Part shown: in pieces, positions 24,884 to 53,325 of the stretch | Numbering within the stretch: the first letter of the stretch is position 1 | How the letters are laid out: the number at the start of each line of letters is the position of its first letter | Origin: Solirubrobacter pauli | Lineage (GTDB): Bacteria; Actinomycetota; Thermoleophilia; Solirubrobacterales; Solirubrobacteraceae | Length of the DNA: 64,000 nucleotides | Reading direction: 5' to 3' | NCBI RefSeq assembly: GCF_003633755.1 | Contig: NZ_RBIL01000001.1 | Coordinates: 3,953,426-4,017,425, forward strand | Made by a program: the position numbers and the translations under genes | The notes under the pieces: model-generated | Databases searched by the model: none | What the model was told of the DNA's origin: nothing | The model's input: the letters and a program-made list of their open reading frames with translations, nothing else

Positions 24884-25603
24884 GTGCAAGCGGCGACCCA
24901 GGCAGCGCAGTCGGCGCGCAACGCACCGCTGAGAGCGCGTGCCAAGAGCGTCCCCGCCGACCTGGTGACCGACGCCGACGCGCGGGCCGAGCACGCCGCG
25001 GCGGAGATCATCCGCGCCGCGCGCCCCGACGACGCGATCGTCGGCGAGGAGGGCACGAGCGACGCCGGTACCACCGGCCGCCGCTGGTACCTCGACGGCA
25101 TCGACGGCACGGTCGCGTTCGCCAACCGCTTCCCGGGCGGCTGGTGCAGCGCGGTCGCGCTCGTCGACGACGACGGGCCGCTCGTCAGCGCGGTCCACGA
25201 CCCGCTCGGCGAGCTCTACGCCGCGGCCCGCGGCGAGGGCGCGACGTGCAACGGCGAGCCGCTCGCGATCCGCACCGGCCGCACGCTGGAGCAGGCCCAC
25301 GTCGCGCTGTTCCTGCGCCAGGACCGGTTGGTGCAGCCGGGCGTACGCGCCAACGGCCACGCGATCATGGACCGCGCCGGGCTGTTCCGCCATGCCGGGC
25401 CAGGCACGCTGGAGCTCGCCTGGATCGCGGCGGGCCGGCTCGACGCGTGGATCCAGCCGAGCACCGACCCGTGGGACTGGCACCCCGGCGCGCTGCTCGT
25501 CACCGAGGCCGGGGGCGCCACGCGCGTCGTCCAGCGGGAGACGCGCTGGCACGTGGCCGGCCCGTCGTCACTGGTTGACGCGCTCGTCGCGCTGCTTACC
25601 TAG
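24884..25603 (+). CDS. Inositol monophosphatase/histidinol-phosphatase family protein
   Basis: The 239-aa protein has all metal-binding motifs of the lithium-sensitive IMPase superfamily: GEEG near residue 55, the DPIDGT equivalent DGIDGT near 72, and WDWHPGALLVTEAGG near 200. It should hydrolyse a small phosphate monoester such as inositol phosphate or histidinol phosphate; the substrate is not determined by sequence. GTG 24884 is the first canonical start. The conceptual frame extends upstream with family-like residues (DLSIAVAAV), so a non-canonical earlier start is possible. Confidence 0.85.
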   Translation: MQAATQAAQSARNAPLRARAKSVPADLVTDADARAEHAAAEIIRAARPDDAIVGEEGTSDAGTTGRRWYLDGIDGTVAFANRFPGGWCSAVALVDDDGPLVSAVHDPLGELYAAARGEGATCNGEPLAIRTGRTLEQAHVALFLRQDRLVQPGVRANGHAIMDRAGLFRHAGPGTLELAWIAAGRLDAWIQPSTDPWDWHPGALLVTEAGGATRVVQRETRWHVAGPSSLVDALVALLT

Positions 25604-26210
25604 GAGGGAGCAGCGCGTGGCCGTCGAGGACGGTCTGCGCGACGTCCACCACGCGCCGCCCGCTCGAACGCGCGTGCTCGCGCAGGAGTTCGAAGGCGGC
25701 GCGCTCGCCCACCGTGTGGCGCTCCATCAGCACGCCCTTGGCGCGCTCGATCACTGCCCGCCGGTCCAGAGCCGACTCCAGCTGCGCCACCTTCTCGTGC
25801 AGCCGCTCCTCCTCGCGGTGGCGCCGCATCGCGACGTCGATCGCGCCCTGGACGTCCGCGGGCGCCCACGAGTCCACGTAGCCGGCGATGCCCATGTCCG
25901 CGGCGCGGGCGATCGTCTCGGCCGACTCGGCCTGCCGCACGGTCACCAGCACAGGGCCGGACGCGAACGTCACGGTCTCCGAGATCAGCGCCAGGCCGTG
26001 CTCGTCGTCGCCGTCGAGCACGACGAAGGCGACGTCCGGGTCTTCCCGCGCGATCAGCTCTGTGGCCTCCGCGACCGACACCGCGAACGGCGCCACCTCG
26101 TGGCCCAGCGCGTCCAGCACGTCCCCGAGCGCGCGCAGGTCCTCCTTGCGCTCGTTGGCCAGGAGGATTCGAAGGTTGCTCTCGCTCGTACTCGAAACGT
26201 CAGTGGTCAT
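25596..26210 (-). CDS. ANTAR-domain response regulator (RNA-binding antiterminator)
   Basis: The 204-aa protein has an N-terminal pseudo-receiver or receiver domain (about 12-125; D66 in VVLDGDD is the candidate phospho-site), a short coiled coil and a C-terminal ANTAR domain (about 140-200; RAVIERAKGVLMERHTVGE). ANTAR proteins bind paired RNA hairpins and prevent transcription termination. Its RNA target is not evident here. It is divergent from the SigB-type gene downstream and overlaps the IMPase gene tail-to-tail by 8 bp. Confidence 0.9.
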   Translation of the reverse strand: MTTDVSSTSESNLRILLANERKEDLRALGDVLDALGHEVAPFAVSVAEATELIAREDPDVAFVVLDGDDEHGLALISETVTFASGPVLVTVRQAESAETIARAADMGIAGYVDSWAPADVQGAIDVAMRRHREEERLHEKVAQLESALDRRAVIERAKGVLMERHTVGERAAFELLREHARSSGRRVVDVAQTVLDGHALLPPR

Positions 26211-26312
26211 GTCCGTAACCGTCTTCTACACTTTTTGGGCCCGGCCGTGACCCCCGCCGGATGGAATCTTGCGCCCCAGACACCCGGCGCAGACCTCCGC
26301 AACCAAACGGCT

Positions 26313-27119
26313 TTGGCACAACTCGACGACCGAGCGAACTCCGGCAATGCGCCGCGAGGATATCCCGCTGACAGCGAATCGCGGGCGGCCCGCGCACGCG
26401 CCGACAAGGCGCTGCTCGAGCGCGCGCACCGTGGTGATCAGCGTGCGCGTTCCCAGCTCGTAGACCGCTTCCTCCCGCTGGCGCGCCAGCTGGCCCGCCG
26501 CTACCAGCGCGGCGGTGAGCCGCTGGACGACCTCGTGCAGGTCGCCAGCCTGGGCCTGTTGAAGGCGATCGACCGGTTCGACCCGAGCCGGGAGACCGCG
26601 TTCTCGAGCTTCGCCGTCCCGACCATCCTCGGGGAGCTCAAGCGCCACTTCCGCGATAAGGGCTGGTCCGTCCGCGTCCCGCGTGACCTGCAGGAGCTCG
26701 CGGTCAAGCTCGAGCCGGTGGGCGAGGAGCTCGCGCGTGAGCTCGGCCGCGCCGCAACGCCCGCGGAGATCGCCGAGCGCACCGGGACGACCGTCGAGCA
26801 GGTGCTCGAGGCGCGCGAGGCCGCCAGCGCCTACCGCGCCGTGAGCCTCGATCGCCCCCGTGAGGACGACGAGGACGGCGACGGCCTCGGCGCCTCCTTC
26901 GGCGTCGAGGACACCGGCTTCGCCAACGCGGAGGACTCCGCGACGATCGAGAGCCTGATGCGCGTCCTCAACGAGCGCGAGCGCGAGATCCTGCGCCTGC
27001 GGTTCGCCGAGGACCTCACGCAGGCGGAGATCGGCGCGCGCGTGGGCGTCTCCCAGATGCACGTGAGCCGCATCATCCGCCAGGCGATCAACCGCTTGCG
27101 CGACGCCGCCGAGCAGTAA
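26313..27119 (+). CDS. SigB/SigF-family RNA polymerase sigma factor (copy 1)
   Basis: This alternative sigma factor of the general-stress type has region 2 (LARRYQRGGEPLDDLVQVASLGLLKAIDRFD, with SRETAFSSFAVPTILGELKRHFRD), region 3, and region 4 with the helix-turn-helix TQAEIGARVGVSQMHVSRII. The start is uncertain: TTG 26313 gives 268 aa and GTG 26247 is an in-frame alternative, and neither has a clear ribosome-binding site. Activity is probably controlled by the nearby RsbW-like and STAS proteins. The match to copies 2 and 3 in this window is strong across regions 2 and 4. Confidence 0.88.
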   Translation: MAQLDDRANSGNAPRGYPADSESRAARARADKALLERAHRGDQRARSQLVDRFLPLARQLARRYQRGGEPLDDLVQVASLGLLKAIDRFDPSRETAFSSFAVPTILGELKRHFRDKGWSVRVPRDLQELAVKLEPVGEELARELGRAATPAEIAERTGTTVEQVLEAREAASAYRAVSLDRPREDDEDGDGLGASFGVEDTGFANAEDSATIESLMRVLNEREREILRLRFAEDLTQAEIGARVGVSQMHVSRIIRQAINRLRDAAEQ

Positions 27120-31173: not shown

Positions 31174-31830
31174 ATGGCCACGGCGATCCTCGACATCGAC
31201 GGCACGCTCGTCGACACGAACTACCACCACGCGGTGGCGTGGTACCGGGCGTTCCGCGCACACGGGTTCGTGATCCCGCTGTGGCAGATCCACCGGCACA
31301 TCGGCATGGGCGGTGATCAGCTGGTCACCGCCCTCGCGGGTGAGGGCTTCGACCGCGAGCACGGCGACGAGGTCCGCGCCGCGGAGAAGATCCTCTACAC
31401 GCAGCTGATCGACGAGGTCCAGCCCCTCACGGGCGCGCGTGCGCTGATCGAGGACCTCAAGGGCGGCGGGCACACGGTGATCCTGGCCTCGTCCGCGAAG
31501 CCCGAGGAGCTCGAGCACTACCTGACGCTGCTCGACGCCCGCTCGCTCGTCGACGACTGGACGGACTCCGGCGACGTCGAGCAGACCAAGCCCGAGCCGG
31601 ACCTCGTGCTCGCGGCGCTCGAGAAGGCGGACGCGGACGCCAAGGACGCCGTGATGATCGGCGACTCGACGTGGGACTGCGAGGCGGCGAAGCGCGCGAA
31701 GGTGCGCTCGATCGGCGTGCTGACGGGCGGGTTCAGCGAGACCGAGCTGCTCGACGCGGGCGCCGAGAAGGTCTTCACCTCGGTCGAGGAGCTCCGGAAA
31801 CACCTGGACGTCGATGTCGTAAGAGTTTGA
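31174..31830 (+). CDS. HAD-superfamily phosphatase (phosphoglycolate phosphatase/beta-PGM-like)
   Basis: The 218-aa protein shows HAD motif I DIDGTLVDTN, motif II ILASSAKP, motif III with lysine in QTKPEPD, and motif IV VMIGDSTWDCEAA, plus the alpha-helical C1 cap of the PGP/beta-PGM group. It should dephosphorylate a small metabolite through an Asp-phosphate intermediate; the substrate is unknown. It is probably in an operon with the DJ-1 gene. Confidence 0.88.
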   Translation: MATAILDIDGTLVDTNYHHAVAWYRAFRAHGFVIPLWQIHRHIGMGGDQLVTALAGEGFDREHGDEVRAAEKILYTQLIDEVQPLTGARALIEDLKGGGHTVILASSAKPEELEHYLTLLDARSLVDDWTDSGDVEQTKPEPDLVLAALEKADADAKDAVMIGDSTWDCEAAKRAKVRSIGVLTGGFSETELLDAGAEKVFTSVEELRKHLDVDVVRV

Positions 31831-31912
31831 ACAGCCACCGCAGCGGAGATACGGCCACTCGAGGCCGGCACGGAGGCGTCCGGCGCAAATCGACCGACGC
31901 ACCCCTGCTGCT

Positions 31913-32776
31913 ATGGATACCCTCGAAGCCACCTCGCCGCCCGCGCCCACGGGAAGCCTGACCCGGAGGGCTCCTGCGGCACGAGAGGAGAAGCCCGTCG
32001 CGATGACCTCCGTCCGGTCAGAGGACGGTCCGAGCCGTTCCGAGGAGGACCGGCGCCTGCTGATTCGCTACCACCGCCACGGGGATCAGGCGGCGCGCGA
32101 GCAGCTGGTGCAGCGCCTGCTGCCGCTCGCACGGCGGATGGCGCGCCGCTACCGCCGCTCCGACGAGCCGCTGGACGACCTGGTGCAGGTGGCGACGCTC
32201 GGCTTGATCAAGGCCATCGACCGCTTCGACCCGTCGCGCGAGACGGCGTTCTCGTCGTACGCGGTGCCGACGATGCTCGGCGAGCTCAAGCGCTACTTCC
32301 GCGACAACGGCTGGGCGGTCCACGTCCCGCGCGGGATGCAGGAGCGCGTGATGCAGGTCGACAACGCGATGAAGGACCTCTCGCGCAAGCTCGGCCGGTC
32401 GCCGTCCGCGGCGGAGGTCGGCGAGGCGCTGAACCTCACGACCGAGCAGGTGCTGGAGGCGATGGAGGCCGCGTCGGCGTACGACGCGGTGTCGCTCGAG
32501 TCGTACCGCTTCGGTGACGAGGGGGACGGTGAGACGTACGCAGAGTCGATCGGCGTCGAGGACGACCGATTCGAGCTCGTCGAGTACGGCGCGACGATCG
32601 CGCCGACCCTCCAGGCGTTGCCCGCGCGCGACCGGATCGTCCTCCACCTGCGGTTCGTCGAGGACATGACGCAGGCGGAGATCGCCGAGCGGGTGGGCGT
32701 TTCGCAGATGCACGTGTCCCGGCTCATCCGCCGCGCGCTCGAGCGGCTGAGGACCGTCGCAGAACACTCAGGGTAA
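31913..32776 (+). CDS. SigB/SigF-family RNA polymerase sigma factor (copy 2)
   Basis: This 287-aa alternative sigma factor has region 2 (RRYRRSDEPLDDLVQVATLGLIKAI; SRETAFSSYAVPTMLGELKRYFRD), region 3 with KLGRSPSAAEVGEAL, and region 4 with TQAEIAERVGVSQMHVSRLI. ATG 32003 is an alternative start that would give 257 aa, closer to the usual family length; GAGGAG lies 12 bases before it. It is not adjacent to its own anti-sigma gene, so it may share the RsbW-like regulators at 28.8, 42.6 or 45.5 kb. Confidence 0.9.
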   Translation: MDTLEATSPPAPTGSLTRRAPAAREEKPVAMTSVRSEDGPSRSEEDRRLLIRYHRHGDQAAREQLVQRLLPLARRMARRYRRSDEPLDDLVQVATLGLIKAIDRFDPSRETAFSSYAVPTMLGELKRYFRDNGWAVHVPRGMQERVMQVDNAMKDLSRKLGRSPSAAEVGEALNLTTEQVLEAMEAASAYDAVSLESYRFGDEGDGETYAESIGVEDDRFELVEYGATIAPTLQALPARDRIVLHLRFVEDMTQAEIAERVGVSQMHVSRLIRRALERLRTVAEHSG

Positions 32777-44205: not shown

Positions 44206-44318
44206 CTACCCGAGGGCGTCGGATTCCAGACCTGGGCGCTGCTGCCGATACTTGGAAGGTCACTCTAATTTCTGGCTGGTTTAGTGGAGGCGTTGAGCGG
44301 TGAGTCAAAGGGGCACCC

Positions 44319-45429: not shown

Positions 45430-45478
45430 AGGAGGCCGCTGAAAACGGGCGGTGCGCCGGTGTTTTCAGCGGTCTCCT
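45430..45478. terminator. 17-bp hairpin, probable bidirectional terminator
   Basis: AGGAGGCCGCTGAAAAC pairs with GTTTTCAGCGGTCTCCT (one G-T wobble) around a 15-base loop that can itself pair. The AAAA/TTTT in the stem gives a weak T-run. It overlaps the stop of the convergent RsbW-like gene. Confidence 0.75.
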
Positions 45479-45966
45479 CAGGCGGGCGAGTCCGCGTCCG
45501 GGTCCCAGCGCCCGTCCGCGCCGACGTTGCCGGTGACCGGGTTGGCCTCGGCGGGGTCGACCGAGCGCGAGTACGCGAACGTCATCCGGACCTCGGTGCC
45601 CTGGCCGGTGGAGCCGCGCAGCTCGAACGCGTCCGAGAGCGCCGCGATCAGCGGCAGGCCGAGGCCCAGCGCGGGCGCTTCAGAGCGCGCCGGGCGCGGC
45701 TGGATGCCGGCGCCGTGGTCACGCACGACGATCGTCAGGCCGTTCTCATCGGCCAGCATCTCGACCTCGAGCATGCCCGCGTCCTCGTCGTAGGCGTGCA
45801 CGACGACGTTCGTGCAGGCCTCCGTGACGGCCATCTTCATGTCCGCCAGGACGGTCGGGTCGAAGTCCAGGGCGTCGGCCATGCCCGCGAGCGCCTGGCG
45901 TACCACGCCGACGCCTTCGGGCCGGGCGGGCATGGTGAGCAGGACCTCCGGGGCCGGGACGGTCAT
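45478..45966 (-). CDS. RsbW-like anti-sigma factor/serine kinase
   Basis: The 162-aa GHKL protein has N-box EACTNVVVHAYDE near residue 50, G1 box DHGAGI near 83 and G2 box ALGLGLPLIAALSD. It is clearly related to the 28.8-kb protein (shared PARPE start and LGLPLIA). Its start codon directly follows the stop of the upstream STAS gene, forming a two-gene antagonist/kinase module beside the RpoD-type sigma gene. The C-terminal 30 residues are a Pro/Asp-rich extension. Confidence 0.9.
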   Translation of the reverse strand: MTVPAPEVLLTMPARPEGVGVVRQALAGMADALDFDPTVLADMKMAVTEACTNVVVHAYDEDAGMLEVEMLADENGLTIVVRDHGAGIQPRPARSEAPALGLGLPLIAALSDAFELRGSTGQGTEVRMTFAYSRSVDPAEANPVTGNVGADGRWDPDADSPA

Positions 45967-46341
45967 CTACTCGCTCGTGCCGTTGCTCGACCGGGCCGCG
46001 GTGATCGCCTCTTCACGGCCCTGGAGGACCGGGAGGACGGGCACGAGGCCGGTGATGTCGAGGATGCGCTGGACTCCCGGCTCGACGGCGTCGCCGACGC
46101 AGACCACATAGCCCTGGCCGGCTTCGATCGCCCGTCGGCGCGCATCGAGCAGCGCGCCCAGCACGGAGGAGTCAACGAAGGTCGCGGCCGTCAGGTCGAC
46201 CACGATGCCGCCGCCGCGGCCGAGGGCCTCGTCCAGCCGCTCTCGGAGCGTCGGCGCGGTGTAGATGTCGTGCTCGCCTTCGACGACGACTACGACGACA
46301 TCGCCGGCGGTCTCGTCGAGCACGATGGGGTTGGCGTCCAT
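45967..46341 (-). CDS. STAS-domain anti-sigma factor antagonist
   Basis: The 124-aa STAS protein has the beta-strand start VVVVVEGEHDIYTAPTLRERL and the phospho-serine loop FVDSSVLGALLDARRR near residues 58-62. From ATG 46341 it is preceded by GTGGGTATCG, which resembles the GGGTAT -10 element of SigB-type promoters. It directly abuts the RsbW-like gene with no intergenic base, so the pair should be made in a fixed ratio. The gene start faces ligD divergently. Confidence 0.88.
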   Translation of the reverse strand: MDANPIVLDETAGDVVVVVVEGEHDIYTAPTLRERLDEALGRGGGIVVDLTAATFVDSSVLGALLDARRRAIEAGQGYVVCVGDAVEPGVQRILDITGLVPVLPVLQGREEAITAARSSNGTSE

Positions 46342-46393
46342 ACGGGCGTGCACGATACCCACTTGTGCCCGATCGGACGCCACAATGGGCATG

Positions 46394-47809
46394 ATGCCGG
46401 ACCGGCTGGACAAGTATCGGGCGAAGCGCGACTTCCAGGAGACGCCCGAGCCCGCGGGTGCCGTCGGCTCCGAGGACGCGCTGCGGTTCGTCGTGCAGGA
46501 GCACTCAGCGCGCGCGATGCACTGGGATCTGCGGCTCGAGCACGAGGGCACGCTCGTGTCCTGGGCGGTGCCGAAGGGCATCCCGGTCGACCCGAAGCGC
46601 AACAACCTCGCGGTGCAGACCGAGGACCACCCGCTCGAGTACCTGGACTTCCACGGCGAGATCCCGGCCGGCAACTACGGCGCCGGCACGATGAAGATCT
46701 TCGACCGCGGCACGTACGAGCTGCACAAGTGGCGTGACAAGGAGGTCATGGTCACGTTCCACGGGGAGCGCGTGCGCGGCCGGTACGTGCTGTTCAAGAC
46801 CGGTGGCAAGAACTGGATGATCCACCGCATGGATCCGCCCGAGGACGCCGGGCGCGAGCTCATCCCCGAGCAGGTCGAGCCGATGCTCGCCACCGCGGGG
46901 GACCTGCCGCCGTCGGACGGCTGGGCGTTCGAGATCAAGTGGGACGGCGTGCGCGCCGTCGCGTACATCGAGGGCGGCCGGATCCGGCTGTCCTCGCGCA
47001 ACCGCACCAACATCACGCCGCGCTACCCGGAGCTGTCGCCGCTCGGCCGCGCGCTCAGCACGCACGAGGTGATCCTCGACGGCGAGGTCGTGTCCTTCGA
47101 GGGCGGCATCCCGAGCTTCCAACGCCTCCAGCGGCGGATGCACCTGACGTCGGAGGCGCAGGTCCGCCGGCTCTCGCAGACCGAGCCGGTGGTCTACATC
47201 ATCTTCGACCTGCTCTGGCTGGACGGGCACTCGCTGCTCGCGCTGCCCTACAGCGACCGCCGGAAGCTGCTCGCCAAGCTCGAGCTCAACGGACCGGCCT
47301 GGCAGTCGCCGGCGCACCACGTCGGCGACGGCGCGGCGCTGCTCGCCGCCTCGCGCGCCCAGGGGCTCGAGGGCATCGTGGCCAAGCGGCTGGACTGCCC
47401 GTACACGCCGGGCAAGCGCTCGAGCGGCTGGATCAAGGTCAAGAACAAGAAGACGGCGGACGTCGTGGTCGGCGGGTGGATGCCGGGGGAGGGCGGTCGC
47501 ACCGGCCGGCTCGGCGCGCTCGTGGTCGGCTTCTACGAGGACGGCGAGCTGCGCTACGCCGGCCGGGCCGGGTCCGGCTTCACCGACGCCGAGCTCAAGC
47601 GCGTGCAGGCGCTCCTGGAGGCGCGCGCGCGTGAGGGCAGCCCGTTCACGGCCGGTCCGAAGCCGCCCAAGCAGGTCCGCTACGTCGAGCCGGAGCTTGT
47701 CGCGAGCGTCGAGTTCACCGACATGACCAACGACGGCACGCTGCGCCACCCCGTCTACAAGGGCCTGCGCGACGACATCGCCCCGGAGGACGTCGGCGCG
47801 CCGGAGTGA
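46394..47809 (+). CDS. ligD: LigD-type DNA ligase with 3'-phosphoesterase domain
   Basis: This NHEJ ligase has an N-terminal phosphoesterase domain (about 25-140; HSARAMHWDLRLEHEG and DFHGEIPAGNYGAG with catalytic His/Asp/His), an ATP-dependent ligase core with nucleotidyl lysine K182 in FEIKWDGVR, and an OB-fold domain (VVVGGWMPGEGGRTG). It has about 472 aa and lacks the polymerase domain found in fused LigD; that function is at 57294. Ku follows downstream. ATG 46385 or 46391 are alternative starts. Confidence 0.93.
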   Translation: MPDRLDKYRAKRDFQETPEPAGAVGSEDALRFVVQEHSARAMHWDLRLEHEGTLVSWAVPKGIPVDPKRNNLAVQTEDHPLEYLDFHGEIPAGNYGAGTMKIFDRGTYELHKWRDKEVMVTFHGERVRGRYVLFKTGGKNWMIHRMDPPEDAGRELIPEQVEPMLATAGDLPPSDGWAFEIKWDGVRAVAYIEGGRIRLSSRNRTNITPRYPELSPLGRALSTHEVILDGEVVSFEGGIPSFQRLQRRMHLTSEAQVRRLSQTEPVVYIIFDLLWLDGHSLLALPYSDRRKLLAKLELNGPAWQSPAHHVGDGAALLAASRAQGLEGIVAKRLDCPYTPGKRSSGWIKVKNKKTADVVVGGWMPGEGGRTGRLGALVVGFYEDGELRYAGRAGSGFTDAELKRVQALLEARAREGSPFTAGPKPPKQVRYVEPELVASVEFTDMTNDGTLRHPVYKGLRDDIAPEDVGAPE

Positions 47810-47855: not shown

Positions 47856-48704
47856 ATGCCGCGCTCAATGTGGAGTGGAGCCATCTCGTTCGGGCTCGTC
47901 AACGTCCCGATCAAGCTCTACTCCGCCGTGTCGAAGAAGACGGTGCGCTTCCACCAGATCAACGGTGAGACGGGCAACCGCATCTCCCAGAAGCGCACGG
48001 ACTCCGTGACGGGCGAGGAAGTCGCCTACGAGAACCTGGTCAAGGGCTACGAGCTCACGCGCGACCAGTACGTGATCATCGAGCCGGACGAGCTGGACGC
48101 GCTGGACCCGGAGAAGTCCCGCACGATCGACATCGAGGACTTCGTGGACCTCGCCGAGATCGACCCCGTCTACTACGACCACCCGTACTACCTGGTCCCG
48201 GACAAGGGCGCCGCCAAGGCCTACGGGCTGCTGCTGAACGCCATGCAGGAGTCCGGCCGCGTCGCGATCGCGCGCGTGGTGCTCCGCTCGAAGGAGCAGC
48301 TCGTCGCCATCCGCCCCGGCCAGGACGGCACGGTCCTGATGATGGAGACGATGATCTTCGCCGACGAGGTCGTGCCCAAGGACGCGCTGGACGGCCTGCC
48401 CGAGGCCGAGGAGCTGCAGGTGTCCGACCGCGAGATCGCGATGGCGCAGCAGCTGATCGAGTCGCTGGTGACCGAGTTCGAGCCGTCCCGCTACAAGGAC
48501 GAGTACCGCGAGAAGGTGCTCAACCTGATCGAGGCCAAGGCCGAGGGCGCCGAGATCATCAGCCAGCCCGAGGCGCCGACGCCGACCGCGGTGCCGGACC
48601 TGATGGCCGCGCTCGAGGCGAGCCTCGCGGCGGTGGGCGGCGACGACAAGCCCAAGAAGAAGGCGTCCGCGAAGGCGTCGGAGAAGGAACCCGCCAAGAG
48701 CTAG
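47856..48704 (+). CDS. ku: Ku protein, NHEJ DNA-end binding
   Basis: The 282-aa protein is a bacterial Ku homodimer subunit that threads onto broken DNA ends and recruits LigD. The N-terminal signature MPRSMWSGAISFGLVNVP and the core ring residues (VRFHQIN, KGYELTRDQYVIIEPDEL, YYLVPDKGAAKAYGLL) are intact. The C-terminal tail is lysine-rich (KPKKKASAKASEKEPAK), as in Ku proteins that slide along DNA. CAGAAT six bases before the ATG may be a -10 element of a leaderless transcript. Confidence 0.95.
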   Translation: MPRSMWSGAISFGLVNVPIKLYSAVSKKTVRFHQINGETGNRISQKRTDSVTGEEVAYENLVKGYELTRDQYVIIEPDELDALDPEKSRTIDIEDFVDLAEIDPVYYDHPYYLVPDKGAAKAYGLLLNAMQESGRVAIARVVLRSKEQLVAIRPGQDGTVLMMETMIFADEVVPKDALDGLPEAEELQVSDREIAMAQQLIESLVTEFEPSRYKDEYREKVLNLIEAKAEGAEIISQPEAPTPTAVPDLMAALEASLAAVGGDDKPKKKASAKASEKEPAKS

Positions 48705-50198: not shown

Positions 50199-50366
50199 CT
50201 ACTCCGTGCCGGGGTCGGGCTGTGGCACCGGCGGGTCGTCCGGCGCCGGGGTCTCGTCGGGCGGAGTCGGGTCGGCCGGGACGGTCGGCTCGTCCGGCAC
50301 GGCGGGCGTCGCCGGCTCGGGCGGAGCGACCGGGGTGGGCGGGTCCGTGGGCTGGGGGACGCTCAT
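50199..50366 (-). CDS. Proline-rich small protein, 55 aa, coupled to a SigB-type gene
   Basis: ATG 50366 overlaps the stop of the SigB-type sigma gene as ATGA, a layout typical of translational coupling. The 55-aa product is about 40% proline, with Asp, Glu, Thr and Val (PTDPPTPVAPPEPATPAVP pattern) and no transmembrane segment. It may be a disordered partner of the sigma factor. No family was recognised. Confidence 0.5.
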   Translation of the reverse strand: MSVPQPTDPPTPVAPPEPATPAVPDEPTVPADPTPPDETPAPDDPPVPQPDPGTE

Positions 50367-51172
50367 GACTCCACCTTCATTCCGGATCCGTAGGCGTACA
50401 GCTTCTCCAGCGACGAGCGGATGATGCGCGAGACGTGCATCTGCGAGCAGCCGACGACGTCGGCGATCTCGGACTGCAGCAGGTCCTCCTGGAAGCGCAG
50501 GCGCAGGATCTCCCGCGCGCGCTCGTCGAGGATGCCGGTGAGCCGCTCGAGCGTGACGCCGGCCTCGACGCGGTCGAACTCCTCGTCCTTGACGCCGATC
50601 AGGTCGCCCGCGGACGCGGAGTCGTTCTCCTCGTCGTGGACGGGCGCGTCGAGGGAGCGCACGGAGCGACCCTCGGTCGCCTGCATGGCTTCGATGATCT
50701 CCTCCGGCGAGCGGTCCAGTCGGTCGGCGAGGTCGGCGACCGTCGGCTGACGGCCCAGCTCGCCCCACAGCTTCTCGCGCGCTTCCTCGAGGGCGAGGCA
50801 GAGCTCCTGCAGGTCGCGAGCGGGACGCACGTCCCAGGTGGAGTCGCGGAAGTAGCGACGCAGCTCGCCGAGGATCGTCGGCACCGCGTACGACGAGAAC
50901 GCGAGGCCGCGCTCGGGGTCCCAGCGGTCGACGGCCTTGACGAGGCCGACGGACGCCACCTGGATGAGGTCGTCAAGGGGCTCACTCGCGCGCCGGTAGC
51001 GGAGCGCGAGGGAACGCGCGAGCGGCATATAACGCTCGATCAGCTCCTCGCGTGCGCGCTCGTCGCCTTTCAGGACGAGGCGCATGAGTCGCTGGTCCTC
51101 ACGCTGCCGCTTCGCGCGGTCGATCGGGTTGGCCGTGTTGCGGGGCCGCTCGGCCGTCGGAGTGGAAGCCAT
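50363..51172 (-). CDS. SigB/SigF-family RNA polymerase sigma factor (copy 3)
   Basis: The 269-aa sigma factor has region 2 (LALRYRRASEPLDDLIQVASVGLVKAVDRWD; LAFSSYAVPTILGELRRYFRD), region 3 (EKLWGELGRQPTVADLADRL) and region 4 (LQSEIADVVGCSQMHVSRIIRS). It has more acidic linker residues than copies 1 and 2. ATG 51172 has no ribosome-binding site, but CGGGTACCG lies upstream. Its genomic neighbours include STAS genes on both sides but no adjacent RsbW. Confidence 0.9.
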   Translation of the reverse strand: MASTPTAERPRNTANPIDRAKRQREDQRLMRLVLKGDERAREELIERYMPLARSLALRYRRASEPLDDLIQVASVGLVKAVDRWDPERGLAFSSYAVPTILGELRRYFRDSTWDVRPARDLQELCLALEEAREKLWGELGRQPTVADLADRLDRSPEEIIEAMQATEGRSVRSLDAPVHDEENDSASAGDLIGVKDEEFDRVEAGVTLERLTGILDERAREILRLRFQEDLLQSEIADVVGCSQMHVSRIIRSSLEKLYAYGSGMKVES

Positions 51173-51247
51173 CAAAGGCTTGCGGTACCCGGGGAAACGG
51201 AAATCACCCCTGGGGTGGCCAAAACCGTTCGTTTGCGGACAGACCGG

Positions 51248-52124: not shown

Positions 52125-52316
52125 TTAAGCGGCGTCATCGTCGCCGACCGCCGAGATCGTGGCGAAGGCCTCGCCGGTCTCGCGGACGTACGCGAGCCCG
52201 TGCGCGACCCTCGCGCGCGTCCCGGATGGTTCATCTCCTGCGGTCAGTGGTAGGACGACGGGGCGGGTGCGGACGACGGACGGCGGCCTTAGGATGACCA
52301 CGAGGATGGAAGCCAA
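52125..52316 (-). CDS. Possible 63-aa small protein (start uncertain)
   Basis: The C-terminal 40 codons have GC-ending third positions and a protein-like composition (ARVAHGLAYVRETGEAFATIS). The ATG at 52316 overlaps the divergent Crp-like gene by 23 bp and has no ribosome-binding site. It could be a real small gene with a shorter start or a chance frame. The 249 bp between the STAS and Crp-like genes hold nothing else that I can support. Confidence 0.3.
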   Translation of the reverse strand: MASILVVILRPPSVVRTRPVVLPLTAGDEPSGTRARVAHGLAYVRETGEAFATISAVGDDDAA

Positions 52317-53325
52317 GCCTCAGCAAGCGCAGCGCGCGGCGGCCGGCGGGCGATCGTTGCTCGACCTGGACGCGGACCTGGGCGCGCTGCTGAGCGACGA
52401 ACGGCGCGAAGCGGCCCGGCGTGAGCTGCACGTCCGGGTGACCACCTTTCCCGTTGGTGAGTGGGACGGGACCCGGCTGGCGGACGCCGATCCGACCCAT
52501 CTCGGCCTGCTGGTCGTCGAGGGCGTCCTGGCGCGTGAGGTCATCCTCGGCGACACCGTCAGCACCGAGCTGCTGGGCCCCGGCGACATCTTCCGGCCCT
52601 GGCACATCGAGGGTCCACCGGAGCTGCTGCCCGTCGCGGTCCGCTGGAACGCGCTCTCGACGCTGCGCCTCGGCCTCATCGACCGGCGCGCGGCCGCGGC
52701 GATCGGCCGCTACCCAGAGGTGTCGGCCGTCATCGTCGACCGGCTGTCCGAGCGTGCGCAGCGCCTGTCGATCACCCAGGCGATCTCCCAGCTCAACCGC
52801 GTGGACCGGCGCCTGCAGGCGCTGTTCTGGCACCTGGCCGAGCGCTGGGGCCGCGTGGCGCGGGATGGGATCGCGGTGCCGCTCGTGCTGTCGCACCGGC
52901 TGATCGGCGAGCTCGTCGGCGCCCGCCGCCCCACGGTGTCCACTGCGCTCGCCGAGCTCGCGCGCGACGGCCAGCTCCTCCGCCGCGACGACGGCACATG
53001 GCTGCTCACGGGCGAGCCGGTCGACGTGCCCGCCGGGGCCGCGGCGGAGGTCATCCGCCAGCGCCGGCGGCTGATGCCGACGCCGGCCGAGCCGGCCACG
53101 GCGGCGGTCGCGATCGCCGAGCCCGCGGGCGAGCGCATGGGCGAGTTGCAGGCGTCACTGCACGCCGCGCGGGCGATCACGCTCCAGCACCGCCGGGACT
53201 TCGACACGATCCGCGCCGAGACGTCCGCGCTGCGCGAGCGGACGCTGCAGCTGCGCAGCCGGCGCGCCGACCATCTCGAGCGCCTGCACGACGCCGCCGC
53301 GGCCCGCGGCCCGAGCTCCAACTAG
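52294..53325 (+). CDS. Crp/Fnr-type transcription regulator (paralogue B)
   Basis: The protein (about 343 aa from ATG 52294; ATG 52306 also possible) matches the 43.3-kb regulator along most of its length: LLDLDADLGALLSDERREAARRELHVR, VVEGVLAREVILGDTVSTELLGPGDIFRPW, ISQLNRVDRRLQALFWHLAERWG and the winged helix HRLIGELVGARRPTVSTALAEL. A C-terminal coiled coil (HRRDFDTIRAETSALRERTLQLRS) is added. It probably dimerises and binds DNA. The ligand is unknown. Confidence 0.83.
   Translation: MTTRMEAKPQQAQRAAAGGRSLLDLDADLGALLSDERREAARRELHVRVTTFPVGEWDGTRLADADPTHLGLLVVEGVLAREVILGDTVSTELLGPGDIFRPWHIEGPPELLPVAVRWNALSTLRLGLIDRRAAAAIGRYPEVSAVIVDRLSERAQRLSITQAISQLNRVDRRLQALFWHLAERWGRVARDGIAVPLVLSHRLIGELVGARRPTVSTALAELARDGQLLRRDDGTWLLTGEPVDVPAGAAAEVIRQRRRLMPTPAEPATAAVAIAEPAGERMGELQASLHAARAITLQHRRDFDTIRAETSALRERTLQLRSRRADHLERLHDAAAARGPSSN

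What the first reader, a model, noticed from the sequence alone, without database searches (positions are those of the whole stretch)
50199..50366. Proline-rich 55-aa protein coupled to a SigB-type sigma gene
ATGA overlap with the sigma gene implies stoichiometric co-translation. A disordered proline-rich partner has not, to my knowledge, been described for SigB-type factors; it could be a novel regulator or tether.
Basis: partly seen in the sequence, partly recalled or inferred. Interest (0 to 1): 0.55.

Follow-up and report, generated by a model that had tools for sequence, protein, structure and literature searches.

The report
Proline-repeat stress protein beside sigma gene
The 55-residue proline-rich protein is real and conserved, but it looks like a small stress protein made under SigB-type control rather than a dedicated partner of the sigma factor whose gene it overlaps.

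Summary
Window 50199-50366 (-) encodes 55 aa (22 Pro, 11 acidic, no Lys/Arg). Its start overlaps the stop of a SigB/SigF/SigG-class sigma gene (ATGA). The overlap is kept in 7 of 7 Solirubrobacter genomes held (one with TTG), and the frame evolves as coding.

The protein is a PXX repeat (Pro every third residue) of a family without Pfam/NCBIfam match, accepted here in 48 of 146 Solirubrobacteraceae genomes. Outside Solirubrobacter no copy that I looked at directly follows sigma: they follow a HAD phosphatase or csbD gene, or stand apart. The sigmas of the Solirubrobacter, g12 and g9 loci do not form one clade. What recurs is SigB-type control: GGGTA 10-11 nt before the start codon in 27 of 36 tabulated outside copies (17 of 371 other genes at 9-12 nt); in Solirubrobacter, GG[GC]TGR-N13/14-GGGTAC before the sigma gene in 7 of 7. 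In several genera the gene sits in a stress island: SigB, DUF6328, HAD, CsbD, ferritin/encapsulin, DJ-1, Ku, TopoIB.

Best reading: an extended, acidic, SigB-regulon stress protein. Expression and molecular role are inferred.

The parts
50199..50366 (-). Pro-rich PXX-repeat small protein gene, 55 aa plus stop
50363..50366 (-). ATGA stop/start overlap of sigma and Pro-rich genes
   Evidence: kept as ATGA or TTGA in 7 of 7 genus genomes
50363..51172 (-). SigB/SigF/SigG-class sigma factor gene
51185..51209 (-). SigB-type promoter-like element GGGTGA-N13-GGGTAC upstream of the sigma gene
   Evidence: same form in 7 of 7 genus genomes; compared with the consensus in passages of PMC8346170
49120..50187 (+). 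Topoisomerase IB gene, convergent, ending 12 nt before the Pro-rich stop
47856..48704 (+). Ku gene, also in the related stress islands of other genera
   Evidence: islands
46265..47809 (+). LigD-type DNA ligase gene

Best explanation
The gene encodes a member of an undescribed family of small (53-94 aa in 40 tallied members), acidic, Pro-every-third-residue proteins of the Solirubrobacteraceae, made as part of a SigB-type general stress regulon. In Solirubrobacter it gets this control by riding, with a 4-base stop/start overlap, behind a SigB-class sigma gene that carries a SigB-type promoter-like element of its own. In most tabulated copies of other genera a SigB-type -10 element (GGGTA) lies 10-11 nt before its own start codon, inside a stress island (SigB, DUF6328, HAD, sometimes CsbD and encapsulin/ferritin, DJ-1, Ku, topoisomerase IB) or, in genus g35, apart from it. 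Shown by sequence: the gene, its conservation, the family, the changing neighbours, the recurring element. Inferred: that the element is a working promoter, that the protein is made under stress, and that it works in the cytoplasm as an extended polyproline-II-like acidic rod, a protectant, spacer or weak scaffold rather than an enzyme or a sigma ligand.
For: Family: profile A3 matches 45 of 146 family genomes at E<=1e-3; a decoy with non-Pro columns permuted matches 0 of 146. Shuffles that keep every Pro in place: S. soli copy against 15 other-genus copies 0/500 in 15 of 15; window copy 0/500 in 9 of 15. Element: GGGTA 10-11 nt before the start in 27 of 36 tabulated outside copies, against 17 of 371 other called genes at 9-12 nt; frequency 0.000335 per strand position. 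HAD genes end in GGG-TAG/TAA in 17 of 19 loci where csbD or the Pro-rich gene follows, against 1 of 19 where neither was seen. In G046 the HAD stop lacks the element but GGGTA lies 11 nt before the Pro-rich ATG; in G043 the HAD is a remnant that has lost its stop while GGGTA stays. In Solirubrobacter GG[GC]TGR-N13/14-GGGTAC lies 11-13 nt before the sigma ATG in 7 of 7, fitting the SigB consensus in passages of PMC8346170. Island genes. Operon sigmas not one clade: p-AU 9.7e-5.
Against: No expression data. In 12 of the 27 the element overlaps the last HAD codon and stop, so coding constraint is a partial alternative. Only 5 of 13 free-standing copies show GTT at -35 spacing (background 25 of 279). 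Genomes of one genus are not independent, so the ratios overstate. Some shuffle tests are weak (S. pratensis copy against G043 77/500, against G047 100/500). The empty decoy search carries the tool's warning that an empty answer alone shows nothing. The protective role rests on composition and neighbours only.
Confidence: 0.62

Rival explanations
1. Dedicated sigma partner: the Pro-rich protein binds the co-translated sigma (anti-sigma, tether or chaperone).
For: 4-base overlap with the sigma gene in 7 of 7 genus genomes; homologues share a locus with a SigB-class sigma in genera g9, g12, g18 and g4.
Against: The sigmas at the Solirubrobacter, g9 and g12 loci are not one clade; outside Solirubrobacter the overlap is with csbD in five copies; no SigB-class sigma ORF at E<=1e-40 in the stretches held of 16 g35 genomes (several contigs are short); no helix predicted.
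Confidence: 0.12
2. DNA-repair accessory: the protein works with Ku and topoisomerase IB of the same island, for example as an acidic spacer or scaffold.
For: Ku and TopoIB lie near the gene in genera g1, g9, g12, g18 and in G021.
Against: No Ku or TopoIB homologue was labelled beside the g35 copies; no binding data; a shared regulon explains the linkage as well.
Confidence: 0.12
3. RNA polymerase-associated disordered protein that works like CrsL of mycobacteria.
For: CrsL is a 5.7-kDa disordered actinobacterial protein that binds CarD and RNAP and is in an operon with otsA (abstract and passages of PMC12709188); 10 of 16 g35 loci have a trehalose-phosphatase gene within about 3 kb.
Against: CrsL has helix-prone segments; this chain is a Pro-every-third-residue repeat. 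No sequence comparison with CrsL was made.
Confidence: 0.06
4. No protein function: a frame kept only for translational coupling or for an overlapping DNA or RNA signal.
For: Low-complexity sequence; a GGGTA element lies just upstream in many genomes.
Against: Coding-type substitution pattern in the genus and similarity beyond the Pro pattern across genera and positions.
Confidence: 0.05

Closest known systems
CsbD-like small stress proteins (PF05532; SigB control recalled)
   Same: Small, no enzyme domain, in the same operon slot; csbD lies directly upstream of the Pro-rich gene in G045, G049 and G009 (Pfam) and, read by eye, G155 and G011
   Different: Unrelated sequence; a Pro repeat; no Pfam match
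CrsL (MSMEG_5890), PMC12709188 (abstract and passages)
   Same: Very small disordered-type actinobacterial protein; CrsL is in an operon with otsA, and a trehalose-phosphatase gene is near 10 of 16 g35 copies
   Different: CrsL has a conserved region 20-45 and helix-prone segments; ours has a PXX repeat and no helix in the model; sequences not compared
RsbW-type anti-sigma factors (recalled; a HATPase_c_2 gene is in the window at 45478-45966)
   Same: Encoded near SigB-class sigma genes
   Different: RsbW is a HATPase; the Pro-rich protein has no Pfam match
Hydrophilins (definition recalled: over 6% Gly, high hydrophilicity)
   Same: Hydrophilic, disordered-type, stress context
   Different: Gly 1.8% in the window copy, mean 3.6% in 40 members

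Membership tests
SigB/SigF/SigG sigma factors (the sigma gene) | NCBIfam TIGR02980 above its curated cut-off | tested here: met
   251.5 bits against 234.35
SigB-type regulon (the Pro-rich gene) | SigB-type promoter sequence, GTTTAA-N12-14-GGGA/TAA/T, or a looser GNNT -35 (passages of PMC8346170) | tested here: met
   Sequence level only: 7 of 7 genus loci upstream of the sigma gene; GGGTA at 10-11 nt in 27 of 36 tabulated outside copies; -35 GTT in 5 of 13 free-standing ones
SigB-type regulon (the Pro-rich gene) | Transcription that depends on a SigB-class sigma and rises under stress | not testable with these tools
   No expression data
Hydrophilins | Gly above 6% (recalled) | tested here: not met
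   1.8% in the window copy; mean 3.6% in 40 members
RsbW-type anti-sigma factors | HATPase domain | tested here: not met
   0 Pfam families for P0001 at E<=0.01
FlgM-like disordered anti-sigma factors | Segments that fold into helices on sigma (recalled) | tested here: inconclusive
   Model without helix or strand; no complex could be modelled
CrsL | Homology in the conserved region 20-45 | not tested
   CrsL sequence not in hand; description from PMC12709188

The most novel reading that the evidence does not exclude
A polyproline-II rod protein is a hallmark output of the SigB-type regulon in Solirubrobacteraceae and serves as a scaffold in a stress island that joins general stress genes, encapsulated ferritin and end-joining (Ku, TopoIB); near-leaderless SigB-type promoters (GGGTA 10-11 nt before the start codon) place it there whichever sigma gene is next door.
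Probability: 0.15. Interest if true: 0.7.

Novelty: new variant of a known kind. Interest (0 to 1): 0.45.

Why it matters
It points to an unannotated small-protein family with a strict PXX repeat, tied by sequence to SigB-type control in a family of soil actinobacteria; the paper searches made (listings only) showed no study of it. The fixed spacing of GGGTA to the start codon offers a simple way to read SigB-type regulons of these organisms from sequence. It also shows that a 4-base overlap with a sigma gene need not mean a protein partnership: close relatives make the same kind of overlap with csbD.

Tried and rejected
Rejected as the general rule: a specific sigma partnership. Rejected: fortuitous frame; hydrophilin; encapsulin cargo in g9, because the Pro-rich proteins there end in PPAPAE-like letters and lack the GSLGIGSLK-like tail of the neighbouring EncFtn (read by eye).

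Beyond the family: class search with A3, 29 of 399 genomes at E<=1e-4, 5 of them outside Solirubrobacteraceae (E 2.4e-5 to 5.8e-5); I did not inspect those five and take them for chance PXX matches. Phylum search with A4: 2 of 396, both inside the family.

Rows dropped. Not accepted: weak hits such as G113, G007, G059, G072, and G127 and G130, whose stretches look like chance repeats. From the 40-member composition tally G008, G100 and G102 were left out. In the sigma tree, two non-operon hits of L162/L163 and one 59-residue fragment were left out. The AU test set was defined by operon but run after the tree was seen. G021's HAD gene, with neither element nor Pro-rich gene next to it, is not in the 1 of 19.

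Slips and corrections. One search printed wrong groups (the prefix 'g3' also caught g35); the corrected 5 of 13 was read from its rows and used. One search had G045's start one base off, mended; it counts as lacking the element either way. One search printed 15 of 17 against 3 of 21 for HAD ends; two searches showed that two of those three (G155, G011) do have csbD and a Pro-rich gene further down, giving 17 of 19 against 1 of 19. The starts of the first 24 outside copies were set before the element was noticed (19 of 24); the other 12 were set afterwards (8 of 12).

Papers: six searches; only passages of PMC8346170 and the abstract and passages of PMC12709188 were seen.

Full report
Observation. 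The 55-aa frame at 50199-50366 (-) and its ATGA overlap with the sigma gene (50363-51172, -) are as described. The sigma is a SigB/SigF/SigG-class factor by NCBIfam. Named close relatives are Solirubrobacter. All 7 genomes of the genus held have the sigma orthologue followed by the Pro-rich frame with a 4-base overlap, ATGA in 6 and TTGA in 1. A purine-rich AAGGTGGAG (6) or GGGAG (1) precedes the start. The frame evolves as coding DNA: differences 190/123/297 by codon position, dN/dS 0.20-1.01 in 15 pairs.

The protein. Proline sits on every third residue, 11 in a row; 8 of 100000 shuffles reach that. It has 22 Pro, 11 acidic residues, no Lys/Arg and no aromatic residue. AlphaFold2 on the 27-row family alignment gives an extended chain without helix or strand, pLDDT 88.6, pTM 0.23; this fits, but does not prove, a polyproline-II-like rod. 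Pfam and NCBIfam give no match.

A family. A profile of the genus copies plus first outside hits matches 45 of 146 Solirubrobacteraceae genomes at E<=1e-3, the wider profile A6 44 of 146. A decoy with the same Pro columns but the other columns permuted matches 0 of 146 (the tool warns that an empty answer alone shows nothing). Weak hits include chance PXX stretches. By inspection and position I accept 48 genomes: 43 tabulated plus G109, G055, G021, G155 and G011; by genus g1 7, g9 7, g12 4, g18 6, g35 16, g3 2, g6 2 and one each in g4, g8, g15, g16. Several were recognised through synteny. Against shuffles that keep every Pro in place, the S. soli copy scores 0/500 in 15 of 15 comparisons with other genera, the window copy 0/500 in 9 of 15, and the S. 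pratensis copy less, with two not significant (77/500 and 100/500). Outside the family nothing convincing was found.

Neighbours. g12: SigB - DUF6328 - HAD - Pro-rich - (DUF6766) - (ferritin) - DJ-1 - Ku - TopoIB. g9: SigB - DUF6328 - HAD (a remnant in G043; none called in the island of G048) - (CsbD in G045) - Pro-rich - (EncFtn - family-1 encapsulin) - ferritin - DJ-1 - Ku - TopoIB. g18: SigB - (DUF6328) - HAD - (CsbD in G049) - Pro-rich - Ku - TopoIB. G009: SigB - DUF6328 - HAD - CsbD - Pro-rich - ferritin - Ku. Not every gene was seen in every genome, and contigs are often short (Pfam/NCBIfam on representatives; other labels by BLAST to these). In Solirubrobacter Ku and TopoIB are still next to the Pro-rich gene, while HAD and DJ-1 lie about 18-19 kb away beside another SigB-class paralogue. 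In the stretches held of 16 g35 genomes no SigB-class sigma ORF was found at E<=1e-40, and 10 of 16 have a trehalose-phosphatase gene within about 3 kb.

Not tied to one sigma. In a tree of 56 sigma sequences the Solirubrobacter, g9 and g12 operon sigmas fall in separate groups; holding the 11 together is rejected (p-AU 9.7e-5; the test was run after the tree was seen). The g12 and g18 sigmas lie in a larger group (SH-aLRT 89) that also holds a second Solirubrobacter paralogue of this window (24969-27116, +). The stop/start overlap also changes partner: sigma in Solirubrobacter; csbD in G045, G155 and G011 (GTGA) and in G049 and G009 (TGATG).

A recurring SigB-type element. GGGTA is rare here (0.000335 per strand position). 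It lies 10-11 nt before the Pro-rich start in 27 of 36 tabulated copies outside Solirubrobacter (27 of 38 with G155 and G011), against 17 of 371 other genes with crudely called starts at 9-12 nt. Those 17 include three Solirubrobacter sigma genes and DUF6328, HAD, Ku, TopoIB and ferritin genes of the islands. In 12 of the 27 the element is the last HAD codon plus stop (GGG TAG/TAA). That ending goes with the downstream gene: 17 of 19 HAD genes followed by csbD or the Pro-rich gene have it, 1 of 19 others. G046 (element off the HAD stop, 11 nt before the ATG) and G043 (HAD stop lost, element kept) argue for selection on the element itself. Five of 13 free-standing copies have GTT at a -35 spacing of 13-14 (background 25 of 279). 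In Solirubrobacter the element is upstream of the sigma gene: GG[GC]TGR-N13/14-GGGTAC in 7 of 7, 11-13 nt before its ATG (window 51185-51209). Passages of PMC8346170 give the B. subtilis SigB consensus GTTTAA-N12-14-GGGA/TAA/T, a looser GNNT -35 for some Streptomyces promoters, and examples such as GTTTGC-N14-GGGTAG. This is sequence evidence only, and genomes of one genus are not independent.

How it most likely works. The simplest account of changing neighbours and a recurring promoter-like element is that the Pro-rich protein is an output of a SigB-type stress response; in Solirubrobacter, coupling to a sigma gene with such an element is one way of getting that control. What the protein does is inferred from composition and company: an extended, acidic chain in the cytoplasm, as protectant, spacer or weak scaffold. 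A sigma or RNA polymerase ligand (compare CrsL, passages) and a DNA-repair accessory remain possible.

Verdict. A real and moderately interesting small-protein family under what looks like ordinary SigB-type control; the proposed sigma partnership is not supported as the general explanation.

Noticed in passing
L155:7998-9137:+ (G109): A Pro-rich stretch of this family lies in frame at the front of a Crp-like HTH gene, a possible fusion; a Crp-like gene also lies at window 52159-53325 (+).
   Followed up: partly
L162:8404-9599:+; L242:3933-5119:-; L244:1028-2235:+: Encapsulated-ferritin and family-1 encapsulin genes sit directly after the Pro-rich gene in the SigB/Ku/TopoIB island of several g9 genomes.
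   Followed up: partly
window 24969-27116 and 31823-32773 (+): Two further SigB-class sigma paralogues lie in the window; the second has HAD and DJ-1 genes just upstream.
   Followed up: partly
window 46360-46380 and 44211-44231 (-): Further GNNT-N12-14-GGGTA sites on the minus strand, the first near the start of the STAS/HATPase gene pair around 45478-46350.
   Followed up: no
window from about 51250 (-): MpsC-like (PF10057) gene directly upstream of the sigma promoter-like element.
   Followed up: no
L163:7892-8485:-: In G043 a HAD gene remnant reads in frame into the Pro-rich gene, without its stop codon, while GGGTA is kept.
   Followed up: yes
L161:8106-8444:+ (G008): A Pro-rich copy whose second half leaves the Pro-rich pattern, possibly a frameshift or sequencing error.
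   Followed up: no
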